From the IMG/VR virus record IMGVR_UViG_3300035662_000067, positions 1 through 38,334 of that record: a stretch of 38,334 bases of DNA. One strand, written 5' to 3'. Shown piece after piece: positions 2,375-22,296 of the stretch. A program made the position numbers and the translations under genes. The DNA is from a virus. Position 1 is the first letter of the stretch; each line of letters starts with the position of its first letter. The notes under the pieces are model-generated. The model saw only the letters and a program-made list of their open reading frames with translations, made no database searches and was not told where the DNA came from.

Positions 2375-4504
2375 TTAAACTGTACCTACAATGGATTCAA
2401 ATGAAACCCCAGTTCTGGTAGCAACAAAGGTCAGACCAATGAAGTTGATTGATCTTGCTGGCTTCACATAGATATCAGCAATGAACTCATTTCTGTCAAT
2501 TACATCAGGGGTGTTGTTAGTTTCATCACAAACTAAGAGGAAGTCAGTGATACCTCTCTTGATTTGAACATCTCTCAAGTATGGTTCAACAATGTTGATG
2601 AAGTTTGCTCTTGTGGTTGCATCATTAAACTCAAAGAGTTGAGCATTTGCTGCACCCTTGATTGCTTGCTCAAGAGTGATGAACAATCTTCTAACATTAA
2701 TTCTATCAAATGCTGACTGATAAGACAGTGCAGTCTTGTCTCCAAAGAGAATAATACCTGATCCAGGAGATGAAATGACTGGGTTGATTCTCTGTGAATA
2801 GAGTTGATCTCTTGCATTTTGATCTGGATTGAATGCAAGTTTAATTGCATACTTGATAGTTCCTCTTGAACTTCCTGCTGGTGAATACCAAGGGAATTGC
2901 TCAATGTCAGTTCTTACACAGAGACCAGCAACATCGCCAGAGCAAGGAATATAAACAAACTGTTGATTAAATCTATCATAGAGGTATTGATATCCACTAT
3001 CAAATACTGCATATGATGAAGAAGTCAGTGGACTGAAGAATGAAAGGACATTTGCAAGTTGAGTTGCTGCAGGAGTTACATTGACAACTAATTCTCTGCT
3101 TGGAGAAATGAATGCAATACAATCTTTTCTTGATTCTGCTATAGAAATCAAATAGTTTGCTTTTGCTTGCTCTTGCTCTTTTCCTAATCTGGTGCTTCCT
3201 TGCAATAAGAAGTTTAGAGGAACACTTACATCATCTGCAAGATAATCATAAGCATTAGTAAGATCTGCTAATGAAGCTGCAAATCCTCCAATATTTCCTG
3301 TTCCACTATAGTCAAATCCACCAGACAGAGAGTAGGAAACATTTCCAATGGAGTTGAATGTTACACCTTCAGCATTGACTCCCCATACACCAGTTGTGGT
3401 ATTTTGTGGAGTAAAGTCTGAAGTAAATTTGACTGATACTGGAGTGGTTCCCCAATATGCATCAGAGGCATCGCCTATTGATTTGCCAGAGTAAATGTAA
3501 TTTGAGTTATAAGCAAGGTAATCTTTGTAGTATATGTTTTGTGATGGTGAAATCTTGGTATCAGATGCCTTTGACAGATTTAAGAACTTTTCAAGAATAG
3601 ATTGAGGAGTTCCTGATACATTACCTACTTTTTTGCTATCTACAACTACAACGTGGAAAGCATCATTTCCACCACCTCTTTCTGTTACATAACCATTTGT
3701 TTTTGGTTTTGTAGCAACACTTCTCCAAGCAAGTGTAGTAGAATCTCCTCTTGCAGTGTCTAAAATGTTTTGAGTATTATACCAATCTTGTACTGCAGTT
3801 GGAGTAACAGTTGCAGTTGTAACACCAGATGATGTGTGAACAGTTACAGCAGCTGATGCTCTAAATGCATAAACACCATTCTCTGTATATTCATTAGAAG
3901 TTGTTTTTACATAAAGAGTTGAAGCACCAATTCCAGTAATGATACCTCTTAAATATCCAGATGCTGTTGAGGTTGTTCCAACTCCAGGAATGACACCAGA
4001 CAGTGCTTGAGATACACCACATCCAACAGTACAATTGGTGGTACTAACTCCAGTCAGAGTTTGATCTGCAAAGTTGTCAATGACACAAACTTTAAGACCT
4101 TCTGCCCAGTATCCAGGATTCTTTGCTGCCCAGTAATATGAAGTTGGAGTTGATGCTTGATATGCATCAAAATTGTTGACAGTTACTGATGTTGAAGCTA
4201 CACCAACACCAGCATTTGAGTTTTTAAGATTTGTTCCAGAACATCTAACAACTTTTAAACTTCCGCCATAGGCAAGGAAGTTAGATGCTGAATACCATGA
4301 CTCATAATGGTAATCGTTTGATGATGGTTTACCAAAAACAGTTACTAATTCATTTTCATTAGTAATAGTAACTACTTGATTAACAGGTCCTTTTGAAAAA
4401 GGTGCTGCAATACCTGCTGCTAAAGATGTCGTATTTGTAACTCCACCTCTTGTTAAATCAACTTCTCTGACTTTAACCCCTGGAGATGCTAAGCTTAACG
4501 CCAT
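2375..4504 (-). CDS. gp18: Contractile tail sheath protein gp18
   Basis: This 709-aa protein begins MALSLASPGVKVREVDLTRG, the standard N-terminus of T4-like sheath proteins. The C-terminal region has FDRINVRRLFITLEQAIK and ends with EFIADIYVKPARSINFIGLT, conserved parts of the sheath core that make the contacts driving contraction. T4 gp18 is 659 aa, so the length fits. The middle (about residues 150-420) is Ser/Thr/Gly/Val-rich, as expected for variable surface-exposed domains. A GAGGAG ribosome binding site lies 5 bases before the ATG, and an exact TATAAATA late box lies 37 bases upstream in the gap after the terminase gene. The gene therefore probably starts a strong late transcript, in line with the many copies needed per virion. 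Confidence 0.96.
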   Translation of the reverse strand: MALSLASPGVKVREVDLTRGGVTNTTSLAAGIAAPFSKGPVNQVVTITNENELVTVFGKPSSNDYHYESWYSASNFLAYGGSLKVVRCSGTNLKNSNAGVGVASTSVTVNNFDAYQASTPTSYYWAAKNPGYWAEGLKVCVIDNFADQTLTGVSTTNCTVGCGVSQALSGVIPGVGTTSTASGYLRGIITGIGASTLYVKTTSNEYTENGVYAFRASAAVTVHTSSGVTTATVTPTAVQDWYNTQNILDTARGDSTTLAWRSVATKPKTNGYVTERGGGNDAFHVVVVDSKKVGNVSGTPQSILEKFLNLSKASDTKISPSQNIYYKDYLAYNSNYIYSGKSIGDASDAYWGTTPVSVKFTSDFTPQNTTTGVWGVNAEGVTFNSIGNVSYSLSGGFDYSGTGNIGGFAASLADLTNAYDYLADDVSVPLNFLLQGSTRLGKEQEQAKANYLISIAESRKDCIAFISPSRELVVNVTPAATQLANVLSFFSPLTSSSYAVFDSGYQYLYDRFNQQFVYIPCSGDVAGLCVRTDIEQFPWYSPAGSSRGTIKYAIKLAFNPDQNARDQLYSQRINPVISSPGSGIILFGDKTALSYQSAFDRINVRRLFITLEQAIKGAANAQLFEFNDATTRANFINIVEPYLRDVQIKRGITDFLLVCDETNNTPDVIDRNEFIADIYVKPARSINFIGLTFVATRTGVSFESIVGTV

Positions 4505-4541
4505 TTTGACTCCTCTAAATGCTTCATTTTTGCTCTACAAG

Positions 4542-4549
4542 TATTTATA
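4542..4549 (-). promoter_or_regulatory. Probable late promoter for gp18 (TATAAATA)
   Basis: The minus strand reads TATAAATACTT in the 56-base gap between the terminase C-part gene and gp18. This is the exact T4 late promoter octamer with the same CTT extension seen before gp13 and gp20. Its intergenic position before one of the most abundantly needed virion proteins makes it the best-supported promoter in the window. Confidence 0.65.
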
Positions 4550-4560
4550 AATTTCTCCTT

Positions 4561-5736
4561 TTACCTGTAATCCCACATATAAGAGAACTCATGGGACTTA
4601 TCTCCATATTCATCAAGATGCCAAACATCCCCATCAACATCAACTTCTGAAGTGTTTTCCATTCCAGTCAAAATAAATCCAAATGGGGACATATCTTGTT
4701 CTATTTGGTTCTTCTGTTCTTCATATAATCTTTTCCTAACATCTTGTTCTGTAAGTTCTTTAAAGTAATCTTGTGCCACTAACCAAGCATAAATTACCAA
4801 ACACATAGCTAAGTCATCATTACATCCCTCTTCTGCTTCAAATGAGTTGTGTTTTTGAATAAAAGTTGTAAGTTCACTGATGATTTCATAATCACTAAAG
4901 ATAAGCTTATCTTCTTCAATCATAGTCTTAAGATTGAGACAACCAACTTTCTTAACTGTCTTGGACATTTTTAACCCAAGTTGTGTCTTCTTCCCAGAAA
5001 ATCCTTGCCCAACAATTTGACCTGCTCTACCACGCATAGAACACATCAGGAGATTTTGATACTCCAAATCATATTGAATGATTGCTGCTACTTGATCGCC
5101 AACATCATTAACTTCACAAAGAATAAATGCATTATTATATGCTTTTGCTACATCATAAATGATGTTTGGAAACAGCATGGGTTTAATTTCATTGTTTCTA
5201 TACTTTGCTACTATTCGATGTGGAAATTGCGTGATATCGAATACAACAAACGCGGAGTAATCACTACCAACTCCCCTTGCTACATCAACTGTAATCAAAT
5301 AATCTTTAGTTGAGTCTGAATCATAATAAACATCCAATCCTTTATTTCTTTTAATTGGAGTGTCATATACTAAACTCTTAAGTTTGCTTGGTGCAATCAG
5401 AGTATCAACAGAACCTAAGAATTCACAATTATGTGATACTATATTATTTGAATAATATAAATTATCTTCACCAACATCCAATAAATCGTAAAGATATATT
5501 TCTTCTTCTACTATTTCATTATATACAATTTTTTTTCCTTGTAGGATATCATCCACTTTGATTGTGGATGCTTTAATTTTTTCCAACCCAAAAGAATGAT
5601 TTTCAGAACATTTTATTTCAGTCCCATCCTCAAAAATTATCCAATGATAAAATGGTTTATAAATTTTTTGAATCCCAGAAAAAGATTTAAATCCAGTAGG
5701 GGTTTTTACTAATAAATCTTTATTAAGTTTAAACAT
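4561..5736 (-). CDS. gp17: Terminase large subunit gp17, C-terminal part: IntC (1-103) fused to nuclease domain
   Basis: This 391-aa ORF begins with a split-intein C-fragment (residues 1-103, ending VSHN) followed by the +1 Cys104 and 288 residues of terminase C-extein. The extein holds the RNase H-like headful nuclease: Asp151 in LITVDVARGVGSDYSA, Glu208 in ILCEVNDVGDQ and Asp307/308 in GCNDDLAMCLVIYAW correspond to the catalytic acidic residues of T4 gp17. Intein features seen are His47 in CSENHSFG (block B-like), Tyr82-Asp-Leu in the block F region, and the terminal His102-Asn103 before Cys104. Its ATG overlaps the end of the endonuclease gene by 8 bases with a weak GGA upstream, suggesting translational coupling. 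On its own it has no ATPase domain. Joined to the upstream fragment it gives a 552-aa terminase. Confidence 0.95.
   Translation of the reverse strand: MFKLNKDLLVKTPTGFKSFSGIQKIYKPFYHWIIFEDGTEIKCSENHSFGLEKIKASTIKVDDILQGKKIVYNEIVEEEIYLYDLLDVGEDNLYYSNNIVSHNCEFLGSVDTLIAPSKLKSLVYDTPIKRNKGLDVYYDSDSTKDYLITVDVARGVGSDYSAFVVFDITQFPHRIVAKYRNNEIKPMLFPNIIYDVAKAYNNAFILCEVNDVGDQVAAIIQYDLEYQNLLMCSMRGRAGQIVGQGFSGKKTQLGLKMSKTVKKVGCLNLKTMIEEDKLIFSDYEIISELTTFIQKHNSFEAEEGCNDDLAMCLVIYAWLVAQDYFKELTEQDVRKRLYEEQKNQIEQDMSPFGFILTGMENTSEVDVDGDVWHLDEYGDKSHEFSYMWDYR
5428..5736 (-). other. Split intein C-fragment (IntC, 103 aa) within gp17 C-part
   Basis: Residues 1-103 of the ORF are not terminase sequence. Motifs in order are MFKLNKDLLVKTPTGF, GIQKIYKPFYHWIIFEDGTE, CSENHSFG, a YNEIVEEEIYLYDLL segment, and LYYSNNIVSHN ending at Asn103, with Cys104 as the +1 nucleophile (codon 5427-5425). 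As I remember the AceL-TerL IntC, it has the same layout (MF...GF..F.GIQK..., TEIK.S.NH.FG, YNE.V.E.I.LYD, VSHN then CEF) and nearly the same length. The fragment therefore appears to carry all intein blocks except block A. Confidence 0.92.
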
Positions 5737-6298
5737 TTTTCCAACACTGCTTCAAAACTATTTTTTTAAGTCCTTGTGATGTTAAATTATACTTATTAGC
5801 ATATTCTTTACAAAATGCTTGAATGTAAGACATTTTTTTTCCATTTTTCATAATCAATCCTACTGATGGTAAATCTGGTTTTGTATCAAATAAAATGCGT
5901 ATTTCTTTTATTTGATTATCTGTAAGTTTTCTACTAAAAACTCTACCTTTCCTAACTTGCTTCATTTTTAAGATTGTTTCTTCAGAAAAACAATTTTTTA
6001 CACCTTTATTCCAGGGAGTAGTGCCCTTATTTACACCACCTATTCCAGTTCTATCGTAATTATCAAAACCTTCTCCTCCTGTAGATTTATTCCATCCATT
6101 CCTATAGGTATCAAATTGTTTTATATAATTAATTTCTAAATTTTTTGCATCTTCTGCAATAATTGTTTTTTCTACAATCTCGAAAATATGTTGAGGTTTG
6201 CTATTTTTATGGTCCCTTTTTCTGGTGCTTGGGTCTTTAGTTTGGCCAACATATTTAATATTATTGTTTAAATCTTTAAGTAAGTAAATATAATACAT
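5729..6298 (-). CDS. Free-standing GIY-YIG homing endonuclease with NUMOD3-like region
   Basis: This 189-aa protein has an N-terminal GIY-YIG domain. YIY (3-5) and KYVGQT (15-20) form the paired strands. Arg26/Arg28 follow in STRKRDH, Glu55 is in NLEINYIKQF, and Asn70 is in GWNKSTGGEG. The Glu-to-Asn spacing of 15 is the same as in I-TevI (E75/N90). Residues about 88-120 (NKGTTPWNKG...SEETILKMKQVRKGR) look like a NUMOD3 DNA-binding motif. The last 65 residues resemble a helix-turn-helix tail ending in CWKNV. All expected catalytic positions are present, so it is probably active. The likely role is to cut terL alleles lacking the cassette and drive its spread. There is no Shine-Dalgarno before the ATG at 6298, and a TATAAATA octamer ends 9 bases upstream of it. 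The 3' end overlaps the IntC start. Confidence 0.93.
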   Translation of the reverse strand: MYYIYLLKDLNNNIKYVGQTKDPSTRKRDHKNSKPQHIFEIVEKTIIAEDAKNLEINYIKQFDTYRNGWNKSTGGEGFDNYDRTGIGGVNKGTTPWNKGVKNCFSEETILKMKQVRKGRVFSRKLTDNQIKEIRILFDTKPDLPSVGLIMKNGKKMSYIQAFCKEYANKYNLTSQGLKKIVLKQCWKNV

Positions 6299-6307
6299 TT
6301 TTATTAT

Positions 6308-6315
6308 TATTTATA
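6308..6315 (-). promoter_or_regulatory. TATAAATA octamer just upstream of the endonuclease gene
   Basis: An exact late-promoter octamer sits in the 34-base gap between the terminase N-part stop and the endonuclease ATG. Transcription starting a few bases downstream would leave almost no leader and no ribosome binding site for the endonuclease. It may instead supply transcripts of the downstream IntC-terminase gene. It may also be chance in this AT-rich spacer. Confidence 0.35.
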
Positions 6316-6332
6316 ATCCAAAAAACTCACAT

Positions 6333-7214
6333 TCACATTTTAGCATAAAGATTTTCCATAGAAATTTGTTGGATATTATTATCATTATCACAAATATCAA
6401 TTAAAGTTTCTCCACTTAAACATTCAAACTCAATTTTAAACTGTTGTTCTGAAGTGTTTGCAATAGTTTGTGCTTTCCATTTTTCATCTCTTCCTGGCAC
6501 TTCAGTCCAATGAACTTCTGTGGGAACATACTCATTTTTACCTCTTTCTGCATCATGCCACAATCGGTAGAAATGATTCATACCATGTGGGGTAGAAACA
6601 ATAATAACCTTTGTAGATTGTCCAGATGAAATTGTAGGGTATACTGATGCAAAGAAGTCGTCAGCAAGGTGGTTTTGAACGAATGCAAATTCATCAAGGA
6701 AGATGATGTTGTATGATCCACCTCTAACTGCAGATGCTGATGTAGAAGCAGCAAGAATCTTGGAACCATTCTCCAGTTCCATAGATCCTCTATTCCAAGC
6801 TATGATGCCCTGCTGTAACCACTTTGGTAGGTTCTCATAAGCAGTCTGTAATCTTTGAAGAAGATCTCTTGCAGTAGATGCTTTGTTGGCAAGAATTGCA
6901 ATATTTACATTATCATTAAAGATAGCATAGTGAAGCAAATAGGATACAACAGTTGTAGATTTACCTGTCTGACGAGGCATCTTGCAAATGTTGAATCTAT
7001 TGTTGTGGAAATTATTAATTAACTTTTCTTGGAAACTATAAGGTCTAAATGGTTGAAGACCATGATCCAGAGTTACAATCTGAACATATGATTTTGCAAA
7101 ATATACAGGATCATTTTTACATCTTACAAATTCAACAATTTGTTCTTGAGAGAACTCTATGGGAGTATTTGCTTTTTTTAAAAGGGGATTACCAAGATAA
7201 ATGTCATTAGCCAT
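6333..7214 (-). CDS. gp17: Terminase large subunit gp17, N-terminal part: ATPase domain fused to IntN
   Basis: This 293-aa ORF carries the packaging-motor ATPase. Walker A is MPRQTGKST at 79-87, Walker B with catalytic Glu is IIFLDEFAF at 170-178 (Asp174, Glu175), and the coupling motif is IIVSTPHGMNHFYRLWH at 204-220. These line up with T4 gp17 SRQLGKT, the IDECAF-type Walker B, and TTPNGLNHFY. Residues 1-264 are terminase. From Cys265 the sequence becomes intein (CLSGETLIDI...) and the ORF stops 29 residues later, so the gene has no nuclease domain. It starts 6 bases after the preceding gene's stop, with a GGAGGGAG ribosome binding site inside that gene's last codons. After trans-splicing to the product of 5736-4561 it would form the full motor, which docks on portal gp20 and cooperates with gp16. 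Confidence 0.95.
   Translation of the reverse strand: MANDIYLGNPLLKKANTPIEFSQEQIVEFVRCKNDPVYFAKSYVQIVTLDHGLQPFRPYSFQEKLINNFHNNRFNICKMPRQTGKSTTVVSYLLHYAIFNDNVNIAILANKASTARDLLQRLQTAYENLPKWLQQGIIAWNRGSMELENGSKILAASTSASAVRGGSYNIIFLDEFAFVQNHLADDFFASVYPTISSGQSTKVIIVSTPHGMNHFYRLWHDAERGKNEYVPTEVHWTEVPGRDEKWKAQTIANTSEQQFKIEFECLSGETLIDICDNDNNIQQISMENLYAKM
6336..6422 (-). other. Split intein N-fragment (IntN, 29 aa)
   Basis: Residues 265-293 of the upstream terminase ORF begin with the block A-type motif CLSGETLI, where Cys265 (codon 6422-6420) is the predicted first splicing nucleophile. They continue with an acidic/Asn-rich stretch and end SMENLYAKM. The AceL-TerL IntN as I remember it shares the pattern C..GDT.V, a short Asp/Glu-rich turn and .I.IEDLYKR. 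A 29-residue IntN is far shorter than the roughly 100 residues of DnaE-type split inteins, so this is an atypical early split. Confidence 0.92.
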
Positions 7215-7220
7215 AATTAA

Positions 7221-8651
7221 TTAATAAATCTCCCTCCACTGAAGAGCAGCAGCAACGCTAGCAGTGGCATTACCAGTAGTAGTGATAGTTCTTACAACAA
7301 GCACATAAATTTCAGAGTTTGTTGAATCTATATTTTGAACAATAATATTTTTCTTTGCCTGACTTAATGTTCCAGAAGCAACTGGTGAAAGTGAGTTTTG
7401 TGATGCACCAGAAGGAACATAACCAGATGCAAAAACATCACCATTATTGTAAGTTGTTGCATTAATACAAAACTCAACACCACTATTATCAGAAGCAGAA
7501 GTCCAAGTTAAAGTTGCCGCATTACTCAAATAAGCAGAACTTGGAAGTTTTATAACTTTATAAACAATACTATTTGTTTCACAGAATAATGAAATATTAT
7601 TCAATTTAACTGATATTCTATTTGGATATCCCTGAAAAATATTTTTGAGACGAATGGCAACCAAAGGAAGTTCTGTTCCTGCTGGTGTTGGTGTGGTTCT
7701 TGTAGCAGTCATTGTATAAGCAAAGTCAATACCACTTTCTACATATCCACCTTCTGACATCACAGAAGAACAAATCTGATCAAATGATGCTCCAATACCT
7801 ACACCAGTATTTCGGAGTTCACAACGAACTGGTAGGTTTGGATTTGCAATATAAACTGTGCTCTGATAGTTGGAATGGTTAAATTCGTGTGCGGTGATAA
7901 GTTGCCCATTATGAGCAAATCCACAACGAACTCTACCAACACCTAACCACTGAAAATCTATAAATGCAAGTTGAGTTTTTGTAATATCTAAATTGAACCC
8001 AGAAGTTCCTGTTCCATCACATTTATCTCTGTTCCATTGTGATTGTGGAATTCTTGTTTCTGTTGCAATTCCACTTACAAAAGTTCTGATTACCCAATTG
8101 TTTGTTCCAATACCAGGATTTATTCCATCAGAAGTATTAAGACCAACCTGTTCAAAATAAATTCCGTCTCTATCATCAAAATATCCAGTTCTTTTAGTTG
8201 CATTTTGTTGAGGAGCATAAAAGTTAAAAGAACTAAAAATTAGTTGTCCTTTTCCTGGCTGATAGTGATGATAAAACTTTGTTTGGTGAATACTAAATGC
8301 AGTAGATCCAATACCAGTTTGTAATTTTGCTGCTGCTTGATTTTGTAAAAATGTTACTGTTGAACCAGCACCAGAAACACTATCTAAAAAGTTTGGGTCA
8401 ATAGCATAAAGGTGCTTATAATCACCAAGAGTAAATGGTTCAGAAACTCTATTTCTACCAAATGCATCAACAGCATTTGTATCTGGATTGATAGTAATAA
8501 GAGTATCTGATGAAATCCCAACAGTTCCTGTGACTGGAAATGGATTATCTGTAGATACTTCTACTCCATCTTTTGTTGCAACATTAAAAACCTCAAAAAG
8601 AGATCTCTCTTGATTTAGATAATCTTGAGTTTGAATATTCCATTGTGCCAT
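7221..8651 (-). CDS. Probable virion structural protein (476 aa) inserted between terminase genes
   Basis: This 476-aa protein starts MAQWNIQTQDYLNQERSLFE and has no transmembrane segment or signal peptide that I can see. It contains SVSGAGSTVTFLQNQAAAKL near residue 91, a central block QLAFIDFQWLGVGRVRCGFA followed by HNGQLITAHEFNHSN (about 225-260), and a Thr/Ser/Ala/Gly-rich β-type C-terminus ending LQWREIY. I recall similar LGVGRVR...HEFNH proteins in marine T4-like and jumbo phages, where they are treated as structural. I do not recognise a precise role. A capsid or tail fibre, or a decoration protein, are the plausible options from composition. It sits between gp16 and gp17, a position with no counterpart in T4. 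Its last codons contain the ribosome binding site of gp17. Confidence 0.8.
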   Translation of the reverse strand: MAQWNIQTQDYLNQERSLFEVFNVATKDGVEVSTDNPFPVTGTVGISSDTLITINPDTNAVDAFGRNRVSEPFTLGDYKHLYAIDPNFLDSVSGAGSTVTFLQNQAAAKLQTGIGSTAFSIHQTKFYHHYQPGKGQLIFSSFNFYAPQQNATKRTGYFDDRDGIYFEQVGLNTSDGINPGIGTNNWVIRTFVSGIATETRIPQSQWNRDKCDGTGTSGFNLDITKTQLAFIDFQWLGVGRVRCGFAHNGQLITAHEFNHSNYQSTVYIANPNLPVRCELRNTGVGIGASFDQICSSVMSEGGYVESGIDFAYTMTATRTTPTPAGTELPLVAIRLKNIFQGYPNRISVKLNNISLFCETNSIVYKVIKLPSSAYLSNAATLTWTSASDNSGVEFCINATTYNNGDVFASGYVPSGASQNSLSPVASGTLSQAKKNIIVQNIDSTNSEIYVLVVRTITTTGNATASVAAALQWREIY

Positions 8652-20757: not shown

Positions 20758-22296
20758 TTAGAACTCTATAATAATTTTGATATCTTCTCTTTGTTGAGAT
20801 TGTCTTGATACAGAAACTCTGTTATCAACATATACAATCTCACCACTCTTTGTATTTATATCTGGATTTGCAAGTCCTCCAGAAAAAGTTTGACCCAAAA
20901 AGGTTTCTCCTATTTGAGATCCTGAAAAACTCAATATATTATAGTTGTTGCCATTTATTGTAATAGAACTTGCATCAAAATTAGAATATGAATATGTTGA
21001 TGTTGTAGATAATCCAGATCCTCCAGTCAAATATCTATCAGATGTTTTTGTAATATTTCCTGAAGAATATGTATCTGTATAAAATTCTCTGGGTTTTGTG
21101 TATTTAATTACAGTAGAAGATCCAATAGAAACTGCACTTACTAAACTTCCAATAGAATTAGTCTGAGATTGTGTTATCAAAGAATCTTCAGGCTCTGAAG
21201 ATGCAGAAGTTCCATCAACTAGAATTCCATAAACTCCTGATCCTGTTGTGTCTGTAAAAGTAGTTGTACTTCCAAATTGAGTTATATCTTTAATTATTCC
21301 AACTCTTGCAAATTGATTTCCTTCAATGAAATCAGGATTTGTTATAGTATTTTCTATTCTGGAATAAACTAAAACTCTATTTGTTCCAAGTTCTGAGTAA
21401 ACATTTTTGCCATGACCTCCTGGAGGTGGTATAATTACATTAAATACTGATTTATTCAATTGTGGTTCTACAATAGAATCTAAATCTAAAGTTGCAAAAG
21501 TGTACCCAGATCCTCCATTAGTCACAATAACTTCTATAGGTCTTCCCTGTTCATCAAAAGTTACTGATGCTAATCCACCAGAACCATCTCCAACAATTGG
21601 AACATCATTAATTATATTTGTTGTTGATGGTATTAAGTAAGGTTGTGAATCTTCAACTAAAATGGTTTCAATCTTCCCATCAACTGCAGCATCTCTGATT
21701 CTTGATATTTCAGAGTCTGTTGAATTTTCCCAACTACTTGGTACAGATATGTAATTAGTAGAATCAATTTTTAAAGCATCTGAAGCAGAAATAGTATAAA
21801 GATATTTCCAAACATATCCATCATTTTCTATTTCTGGAGATTCTGAAGTGTGAATAGGTTCATTTATAGAAATTACTCCCAGATTTTGATTTGAGGGAGC
21901 AGCACCATTATTAATACAAACATAAACTCTATAATCTCTATTTACAACATAATATCTACTATCGTATAATCTTGTAGATCTTGTAATAGGAGTTAAATTA
22001 TATCTACTATAATCATGCCTATACATATCATACTTTAATCCAGAAGTCCATTGAATTTTTGGAATAACTCTGATAGTATTTGATGATGTTATTTTTTTAA
22101 CTCCCAATATTGTATTTTTATACTCATTCAAATAATTTAAATTATCTACAGGATCTGGGGTGTTGCTGTTCCAATCTGAAAAATAGTCACTATAATTTGA
22201 CAACCCTATGAAGCAATAATAATTTCCGTTATCAACATCATTAATAAAATTAGTACAGGTTCTAATTTTTAAATTATCAGTTATTATAGCTGGCAT
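20758..22296 (-). CDS. gp8: Baseplate wedge protein gp8
   Basis: This 512-aa protein has the gp8 N-terminal layout: an opening helix LKIRTCTNFINDVDNGNYYC, FIGLSNYSDYFSDWNSNTPD, then the conserved YVVNRDYRVYVCINNG and ENDGYVWKYLYTISASDALK (about 120-185). Family role: a dimer within each baseplate wedge, binding gp7 and gp10 in T4. It is longer than T4 gp8 (334 aa). The extra C-terminal half is Ser/Thr/Gly-rich and contains one EVIVTNGGSGYTFATLDLDS unit of the G-x-G-Y repeat family near residue 260. It is placed after the gp7-like and 916-aa genes and immediately before the DUF4815 gene. No clear ribosome binding site precedes the ATG. An AATAAATAA stretch lies 20 bases upstream. Confidence 0.9.
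   Translation of the reverse strand: MPAIITDNLKIRTCTNFINDVDNGNYYCFIGLSNYSDYFSDWNSNTPDPVDNLNYLNEYKNTILGVKKITSSNTIRVIPKIQWTSGLKYDMYRHDYSRYNLTPITRSTRLYDSRYYVVNRDYRVYVCINNGAAPSNQNLGVISINEPIHTSESPEIENDGYVWKYLYTISASDALKIDSTNYISVPSSWENSTDSEISRIRDAAVDGKIETILVEDSQPYLIPSTTNIINDVPIVGDGSGGLASVTFDEQGRPIEVIVTNGGSGYTFATLDLDSIVEPQLNKSVFNVIIPPPGGHGKNVYSELGTNRVLVYSRIENTITNPDFIEGNQFARVGIIKDITQFGSTTTFTDTTGSGVYGILVDGTSASSEPEDSLITQSQTNSIGSLVSAVSIGSSTVIKYTKPREFYTDTYSSGNITKTSDRYLTGGSGLSTTSTYSYSNFDASSITINGNNYNILSFSGSQIGETFLGQTFSGGLANPDINTKSGEIVYVDNRVSVSRQSQQREDIKIIIEF

What the first reader, a model, noticed from the sequence alone, without database searches (positions are those of the whole stretch)
6336..6422. Extremely short 29-residue IntN: an early split point, unlike DnaE-type split inteins
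Split inteins of the DnaE type are cut where an endonuclease would sit, leaving about 100 residues in IntN. Here the N-fragment is a 29-residue peptide holding only block A (Cys265, G268, T270), and block B (His47) lies in the 103-residue C-fragment. From memory, AceL-TerL has 25 + 104 residues with the same CxxGxT and ENLY/EDLY signatures. This sequence has a longer Asn/Asp turn (CDNDNNIQQ), so it is a distinct member of that class.
Basis: partly seen in the sequence, partly recalled or inferred. Interest (0 to 1): 0.7.

Follow-up and report, generated by a model that had tools for sequence, protein, structure and literature searches.

The report
Split intein in phage packaging gene
A marine phage's DNA-packaging enzyme gene is broken in two by a mobile nuclease gene, and the halves can be rejoined at the protein level by a known type of split intein whose first piece is only 29 residues; it is a new natural member of a family already used in the laboratory, with an unexpected control sequence that may let the nuclease switch itself off.

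Summary
In detail: a 29-residue IntN (6336-6422, minus strand) ends the N-terminal half of a T4-type large terminase; a 103-residue IntC starts the C-terminal half; a GIY-YIG homing-endonuclease gene lies between. It is not an assembly error: the same layout is in dozens of IMG/VR contigs. It is not unusual for its class. IntC matches CatC of PDB 6DSL (E 6.5e-51) and IntN matches CatN without gaps (4.9e-6); 29 is the commonest IntN length here. AceL-TerL has 25 residues, Cat 30, GOS-TerL 37, and PolB16 OarG only 15. So it is a new natural member of the AceL/Cat-TerL atypically split inteins, and the "longer turn" argument fails. The surroundings add more. (1) Between IntN and the endonuclease lies an 18-bp copy of the terminase homing site abutting a T4-type late promoter, kept across deeply diverged relatives; this is the layout of the I-TevI autorepressor operator, and it also sets where IntN stops. 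(2) AceL-TerL appears to be an endonuclease-deleted relic of this cassette: its IntN end is a scar of the nuclease gene. (3) Two contigs carry a naturally re-fused, contiguous intein with a 24-nt scar. Trans-splicing and autorepression are inferred, not shown.

The parts
6423..7214 (-). TerL N-extein, 264 aa, ATPase domain (Walker A RQTGKST, Walker B IIFLDEF), ends ...QFKIEFE
   Evidence: Pfam Terminase_6N 3e-22; aligns to intein-less TerL of S-SCSM1 and S-SM2
6336..6422 (-). IntN, 29 aa, block A (C1, G4, T6); stop TGA at 6333-6335
   Evidence: (CatN of 6DSL, E 4.9e-6)
6317..6334 (-). GAATGTGAGTTTTTTGGA: copy of the TerL intein insertion site (E|CEF[L/F]G), candidate endonuclease-binding operator; the same sequence element supplies the IntN stop in most relatives
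   Evidence: 14/18 to the window's own empty site, 15/18 one base upstream; best non-self 18-mer match on the coding strand of the window; same register in all 14 divergent representatives
6308..6315 (-). TATAAATA, T4-type late promoter element upstream of the endonuclease gene
   Evidence: ATAAATA occurs 6 times in the window, all on the coding strand, 5 of them 16-44 nt before a gene start; conserved in nearly all GIY loci
5729..6298 (-). GIY-YIG homing endonuclease, 189 aa
   Evidence: Pfam GIY-YIG 1.1e-6; PHROG homing endonuclease 2.3e-17; GIY-YIG core, R and E/N motifs conserved, no internal stops in 59 copies
5729..5736 (-). 8-nt overlap ATGTTTAA of endonuclease stop and IntC start (possible translational coupling)
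   Evidence: identical in 56 of 61 loci
5428..5736 (-). IntC, 103 aa, block B S-E-N-H47, C-terminal SHN
   Evidence: CatC of 6DSL, E 6.5e-51
4561..5427 (-). TerL C-extein (Cys+1 onward), nuclease domain, with stop
   Evidence: Pfam Terminase_6C 6.6e-16; 80% identical to intein-less cyanophage TerL

Best explanation
This is a fractured terL gene of a T4-type marine cyanophage. Two polypeptides are made: TerL ATPase half plus a 29-aa IntN, and a 103-aa IntC plus TerL nuclease half. IntN inserts into the partly folded IntC, completes a HINT fold, and splices the halves in trans through Cys1, Asn103 and Cys+1 (inferred from homology to AceL/Cat-TerL). The GIY-YIG gene between them is the mobility module: it is inferred to cut intein-less terL at FE|CEFLG so that repair copies the IntN, endonuclease and IntC cassette into it. 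Its own late promoter abuts an 18-bp imitation of the homing site, to which the enzyme may bind without cutting and so repress itself, as I-TevI does (hypothesis, about 50%). The IntN end point is set by this imitation site, which supplies the stop codon in most relatives. The confidence given is for the trans-splicing, fractured-gene reading, not for the operator.
For: Family membership: 6DSL chains A and B are the top hits for both fragments. Fold: relative L054 read through its two stops gives pLDDT 89.7 and pTM 0.83, with the first three 10-residue blocks (IntN) at 84-95; the top Foldseek hit is 6DSL_B (TMt 0.88), and contiguous inteins match at TMq up to 0.84. Essential motifs lie in different halves, and cyanophages without the intein have the uninterrupted ...EFECEFLGSV.... 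Selection acts on all parts (pN/pS IntC 0.14, GIY 0.23, exteins 0.15-0.21, IntN 0.57). Mobility: against L007, synonymous difference is 0.77/0.68 in the exteins but 0.28/0.29 in GIY/IntC. Operator: same register in 14 of 14 divergent representatives, pairwise identity 0.79 against 0.51 at GIY fourfold sites; 17/18 in L092; a copy is kept in L097, where the nuclease domain is HNH but the C-terminal domain is shared. I-TevI precedent: 15/20 identity over a late promoter (PMC2988022).
Against: No splicing, cleavage or binding was measured. The structure model is of L054 read through two stops, not of a two-chain complex of the window's own fragments. Loci share ancestry, so operator conservation is not independent replication. 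The copy could be an old insertion scar, and in L057/L059 it is translated in frame. L123 lacks a clear copy and L122 has only a weak one.
Confidence: 0.9

Rival explanations
1. Assembly or sequencing error hiding a contiguous intein.
For: None found. Contiguous relatives exist (L095, L096), but at a distance and with a deletion scar.
Against: About 60 contigs with the same break, an intact 189-aa ORF between, and a conserved 8-nt overlap.
Confidence: 0.01
2. RNA-level repair: the nuclease gene lies in a self-splicing intron that restores a contiguous intein ORF. ICP1 terL is spliced this way (PMC10448857).
For: GIY-YIG genes are common in phage introns.
Against: No Rfam intron hit in 4400-7400. 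The nuclease stop overlaps the IntC start, leaving no room for a 3' intron part. Loci without the nuclease gene (L015, L054, L090) still have a stop and a new start between the halves. Split-intein chemistry accounts for the layout.
Confidence: 0.03
3. The 18-bp homing-site copy is only a scar of how the nuclease gene entered the intein, not an operator.
For: It is translated in frame in L057/L059 (IntN ends ...DECEFLGL), as a simple duplication would be.
Against: In most loci it is out of frame and untranslated, yet more conserved than GIY fourfold sites (0.79 against 0.51). It abuts the late promoter. It is lost or reduced in loci that lost the nuclease (L054, L090, L093, L015).
Confidence: 0.35
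4. The two TerL halves work as a non-covalent pair and the intein is dead.
For: TerL ATPase and nuclease are separate domains.
Against: C1, block B (SxxH), H102, N103 and Cys+1 are all kept; IntC pN/pS is 0.14; natural re-fusions keep the intein ORF open (L095/L096).
Confidence: 0.04

Closest known systems
Cat-TerL, consensus atypical intein, PDB 6DSL
   Same: IntN aligns without gaps, IntC about 73% identical; Cys1/Cys+1, same split point
   Different: Engineered consensus; this is a natural sequence in its gene context with endonuclease and promoter
AceL-TerL
   Same: Same insertion site FE|CEFLG, same class and split point; natural copy found as L090/L091 (99%)
   Different: IntN 25 aa and no endonuclease; its IntN end matches the 3' end of the nuclease gene of sister locus L092, so it looks like a deletion derivative
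GOS-TerL (Ser1/Cys+1)
   Same: Same insertion site and early split
   Different: Ser1; the Ser1 relatives found here (L067, L069, L080) carry a larger HTH/DUF559 (REase_MTES_1575)-type nuclease ORF rather than GIY-YIG (Pfam for L067 only)
Fractured genes with a free-standing endonuclease (Dassa 2009, not readable here; AceL NrdHF with GIY-YIG, PMC7891396)
   Same: Gene, IntN, endonuclease gene, IntC, gene layout; GIY-YIG precedent
   Different: AceL NrdHF is split at the classical site (98+48)
I-TevI autorepressor
   Same: GIY-YIG enzyme with a homing-site-like sequence at its own late promoter (PMC2988022)
   Different: I-TevI sits in an RNA intron; here the gene sits in a split intein; binding untested

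Membership tests
AceL/Cat-TerL atypically split inteins | Short IntN (about 25-37 aa) with block A only, IntC about 103-115 aa with block B onward | tested here: met
   29 + 103 aa; family values
AceL/Cat-TerL atypically split inteins | Sequence homology to both Cat fragments | tested here: met
   E 6.5e-51 and 4.9e-6
AceL/Cat-TerL atypically split inteins | Insertion in TerL before Cys of CEFLG | tested here: met
   Empty sites in S-SCSM1 and S-SM2; AceL loci at the same site
AceL/Cat-TerL atypically split inteins | HINT fold when IntN meets IntC | tested here: inconclusive
   Shown for relative L054 read through as one chain; two-chain complex of the window not run
AceL/Cat-TerL atypically split inteins | Trans-splicing activity | not testable with these tools
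   Needs expression
GIY-YIG homing endonuclease | Catalytic motifs conserved and ORF intact | tested here: met
GIY-YIG homing endonuclease | Cuts the empty insertion site | not testable with these tools
   Indirect only: cassette diverged less than its flanks
I-TevI-type autorepression | Homing-site-like sequence overlapping or abutting the enzyme's late promoter | tested here: met
   precedent. The homing site is assumed to be the intein insertion site
I-TevI-type autorepression | Enzyme binds the operator and represses | not testable with these tools
   Needs a binding and reporter assay
Group I intron with endonuclease | Recognisable intron RNA | tested here: not met
   No Rfam intron at E up to 1

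The most novel reading that the evidence does not exclude
Split inteins of this family come and go through a cycle run by a self-regulated nuclease: a GIY-YIG (or domain-swapped HNH) enzyme whose operator imitates the intein's own homing site and sets the IntN end; later deletion of the nuclease leaves either a smaller split intein (AceL-TerL) or a contiguous re-fused intein (L095/L096). The autorepressor logic known from intron endonuclease I-TevI would then have arisen or been kept in inteins.
Probability: 0.5. Interest if true: 0.62.

Novelty: new member of a known kind. Interest (0 to 1): 0.45.

Why it matters
The window is a natural, endonuclease-bearing relative of a split intein used for protein labelling, close to the engineered consensus Cat. 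Its family shows intact, nuclease-lost and re-fused states side by side, which makes the question of how split inteins arise and revert testable. It also explains why AceL-TerL has the IntN end it has, and suggests that the nuclease controls itself through a copy of its own target. The dozens of natural IntN/IntC pairs collected here are a resource for faster or orthogonal splicing tools.

Tried and rejected
Assembly error (rejected). Intron (no Rfam hit; overlapping ORFs). Hairpin over the nuclease start as in T4 introns: fold z-score only -1.5, so not claimed. tblastn of the nuclease against GenBank phages: no match at E 1e-3. Mixed IntN+IntC alignments for AlphaFold were misaligned by MAFFT and replaced by an IntC-only alignment. 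Dassa 2009, the GOS-TerL paper and the Cat paper were not held. The first idea that IntN was not co-transferred (low IntN identity against L007) was dropped: its pooled synonymous divergence (0.38) is that of the cassette (IntC 0.33), not of the exteins (0.62-0.65).

Full report
OBSERVATION. The minus-strand ORF 6333-7214 is 264 residues of T4-type TerL followed by CLSGETLIDICDNDNNIQQISMENLYAKM and TGA; the ORF 4561-5736 begins with 103 intein residues ending SHN, then Cys+1 of CEFLGSV. Between them a 189-aa GIY-YIG ORF overlaps the IntC start by 8 nt. Neighbours are small terminase, tail sheath, tail tube, head closure and baseplate genes; the nearest intein-less TerL proteins are those of Synechococcus phages S-SCSM1 and Bellamy at 80%. 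The window is a fragment of a T4-type marine cyanophage.

IDENTITY. Against all PDB chains, IntC matches CatC of 6DSL (E 6.5e-51) and IntN matches CatN (E 4.9e-6, residues 2-28, no gaps). Cat is a consensus of the AceL-TerL family. A review lists AceL-TerL 25+104, GOS-TerL 37+115 (Ser1/Cys+1) and Cat 30+104 (PMC11766414); PolB16 OarG has 15 (PMC10189870). Among relatives 29 is the commonest IntN length. So neither the length nor the turn sets this sequence apart.

NOT AN ERROR. The search for related loci returned 80 IMG/VR loci. In about 60 the order N-extein, IntN, stop, GIY-YIG ORF, IntC is kept (some contigs are cut off before IntN), with GIY identity 48-100%. The overlap ATGTTTAA is identical in 56 of 61. 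No GIY copy has an internal stop.

SELECTION AND MOBILITY. Pooled pN/pS is 0.14 (IntC), 0.23 (GIY), 0.15-0.21 (exteins) and 0.57 (IntN); for 29-aa IntN sequences 0.52 with bootstrap 0.36-0.76. C1, L2, G4, T6, I10, L25 and Y26 do not vary. Against L007 the exteins differ at 0.68-0.77 of synonymous sites but GIY and IntC at 0.28-0.29, as expected if the cassette moved between diverged terL genes.

FOLD. The tools could not fold two chains. Relative L054 has lost the nuclease gene and its halves are in frame through two TAA codons, so it was read through as one chain: pLDDT 89.7, pTM 0.83, IntN confident. Best Foldseek hit is 6DSL_B (TMt 0.88), followed by contiguous inteins with TMq up to 0.84. 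This supports a completed HINT fold for a relative with 79% identical IntC; it is a proxy for the window.

OPERATOR AND PROMOTER. Between IntN and the nuclease gene lies GAATGTGAGTTTTTTGGATTATAAATA. TATAAATA is the T4-type late element: ATAAATA occurs 6 times in the window against 23 expected, all on the coding strand, 5 of them 16-44 nt before a gene start. The preceding 18 bp copies the terL insertion site (E|CEFLG). In all 14 representatives under 85% GIY identity the best alignment of this region to the locus's own junction is in that register (in L059 another diagonal ties at 12/18). In the window no other non-self coding-strand 18-mer matches the junction as well. Divergent loci L092 (17/18), L097, L101, L103, L113, L120 and L153 also have it; L122 is weak and L123 lacks it. 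Pairwise identity is 0.79 against 0.51 at GIY fourfold sites. In most loci it is untranslated and supplies the IntN stop (GA ATG TGA G); in L057/L059 it is read in frame as DECEFLGL or a close variant. I-TevI has the same arrangement, 15/20 identity between homing site and an operator over its late promoter, and represses itself (PMC2988022). In L097 the catalytic domain is HNH_3 while the C-terminal domain and the copy remain, as expected if that domain reads the DNA. Autorepression is my inference.

ENDONUCLEASE LOSS AND RE-FUSION. L015, L037, L054 and L093 lack the nuclease and are still split. L054 keeps the last codons of the nuclease gene (GAGTGTTGGAAAAATGTTTAA). AceL's IntN end GGTTGGCATAATG matches the nuclease tail AGTTGGCATAATG of L092. 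L095 and L096 are contiguous ORFs in which IntN is joined to IntC through TTGAAAAAAAGAGTTGGACAAATG, identical to the nuclease tail of L097. The IntC tree places nuclease-less rows in several places among GIY-bearing rows (7 changes; few columns, long branches).

STATUS OF STEPS. Shown by sequence: the layout, its conservation, homology to Cat, purifying selection, the site copy and promoter, the scars. Inferred: trans-splicing, homing, autorepression, direction of loss. Fractured genes with GIY-YIG are already known (AceL NrdHF, PMC7891396), so the split gene itself is a new member of a known kind.

Noticed in passing
L047:216-2311 and L048: One terL with two early-split inteins: at Walker A (IntN CFNINTKIRIKNKKTGKILELSIGEF..., Vsr/DUF559-type nuclease ORF, IntC) and at the nuclease site with GIY-YIG, so TerL would be assembled from three polypeptides.
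   Followed up: partly
L081 (Vibrio phage VP-1), L086 (Vibrio phage K469): At the same TerL site the GIY-YIG domain is fused in frame behind IntN, and IntC is on an overlapping ORF: a different architecture of the same fracture.
   Followed up: partly
L082 (E. coli phage phiS): terL of a Krischvirus is fractured at another site (Walker B, IDE|C) with IntN fused to a nuclease-like ORF overlapping the IntC ORF; a cultivable laboratory system for natural TerL trans-splicing.
   Followed up: no
L095, L096: Natural re-fused contiguous intein carrying a 24-nt scar of the lost endonuclease gene.
   Followed up: yes
L097, L122: HNH_3 catalytic domain in place of GIY-YIG ahead of a shared C-terminal domain: nuclease domain swap at one homing site.
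   Followed up: partly
L067-L072: terL genes with additional contiguous inteins at Walker A and near residue 208 besides the split one.
   Followed up: no
window 20853-20859: A late-promoter-like ATAAATA 103 nt before the next gene start, inside the preceding ORF; the only one of six not close to a start.
   Followed up: no
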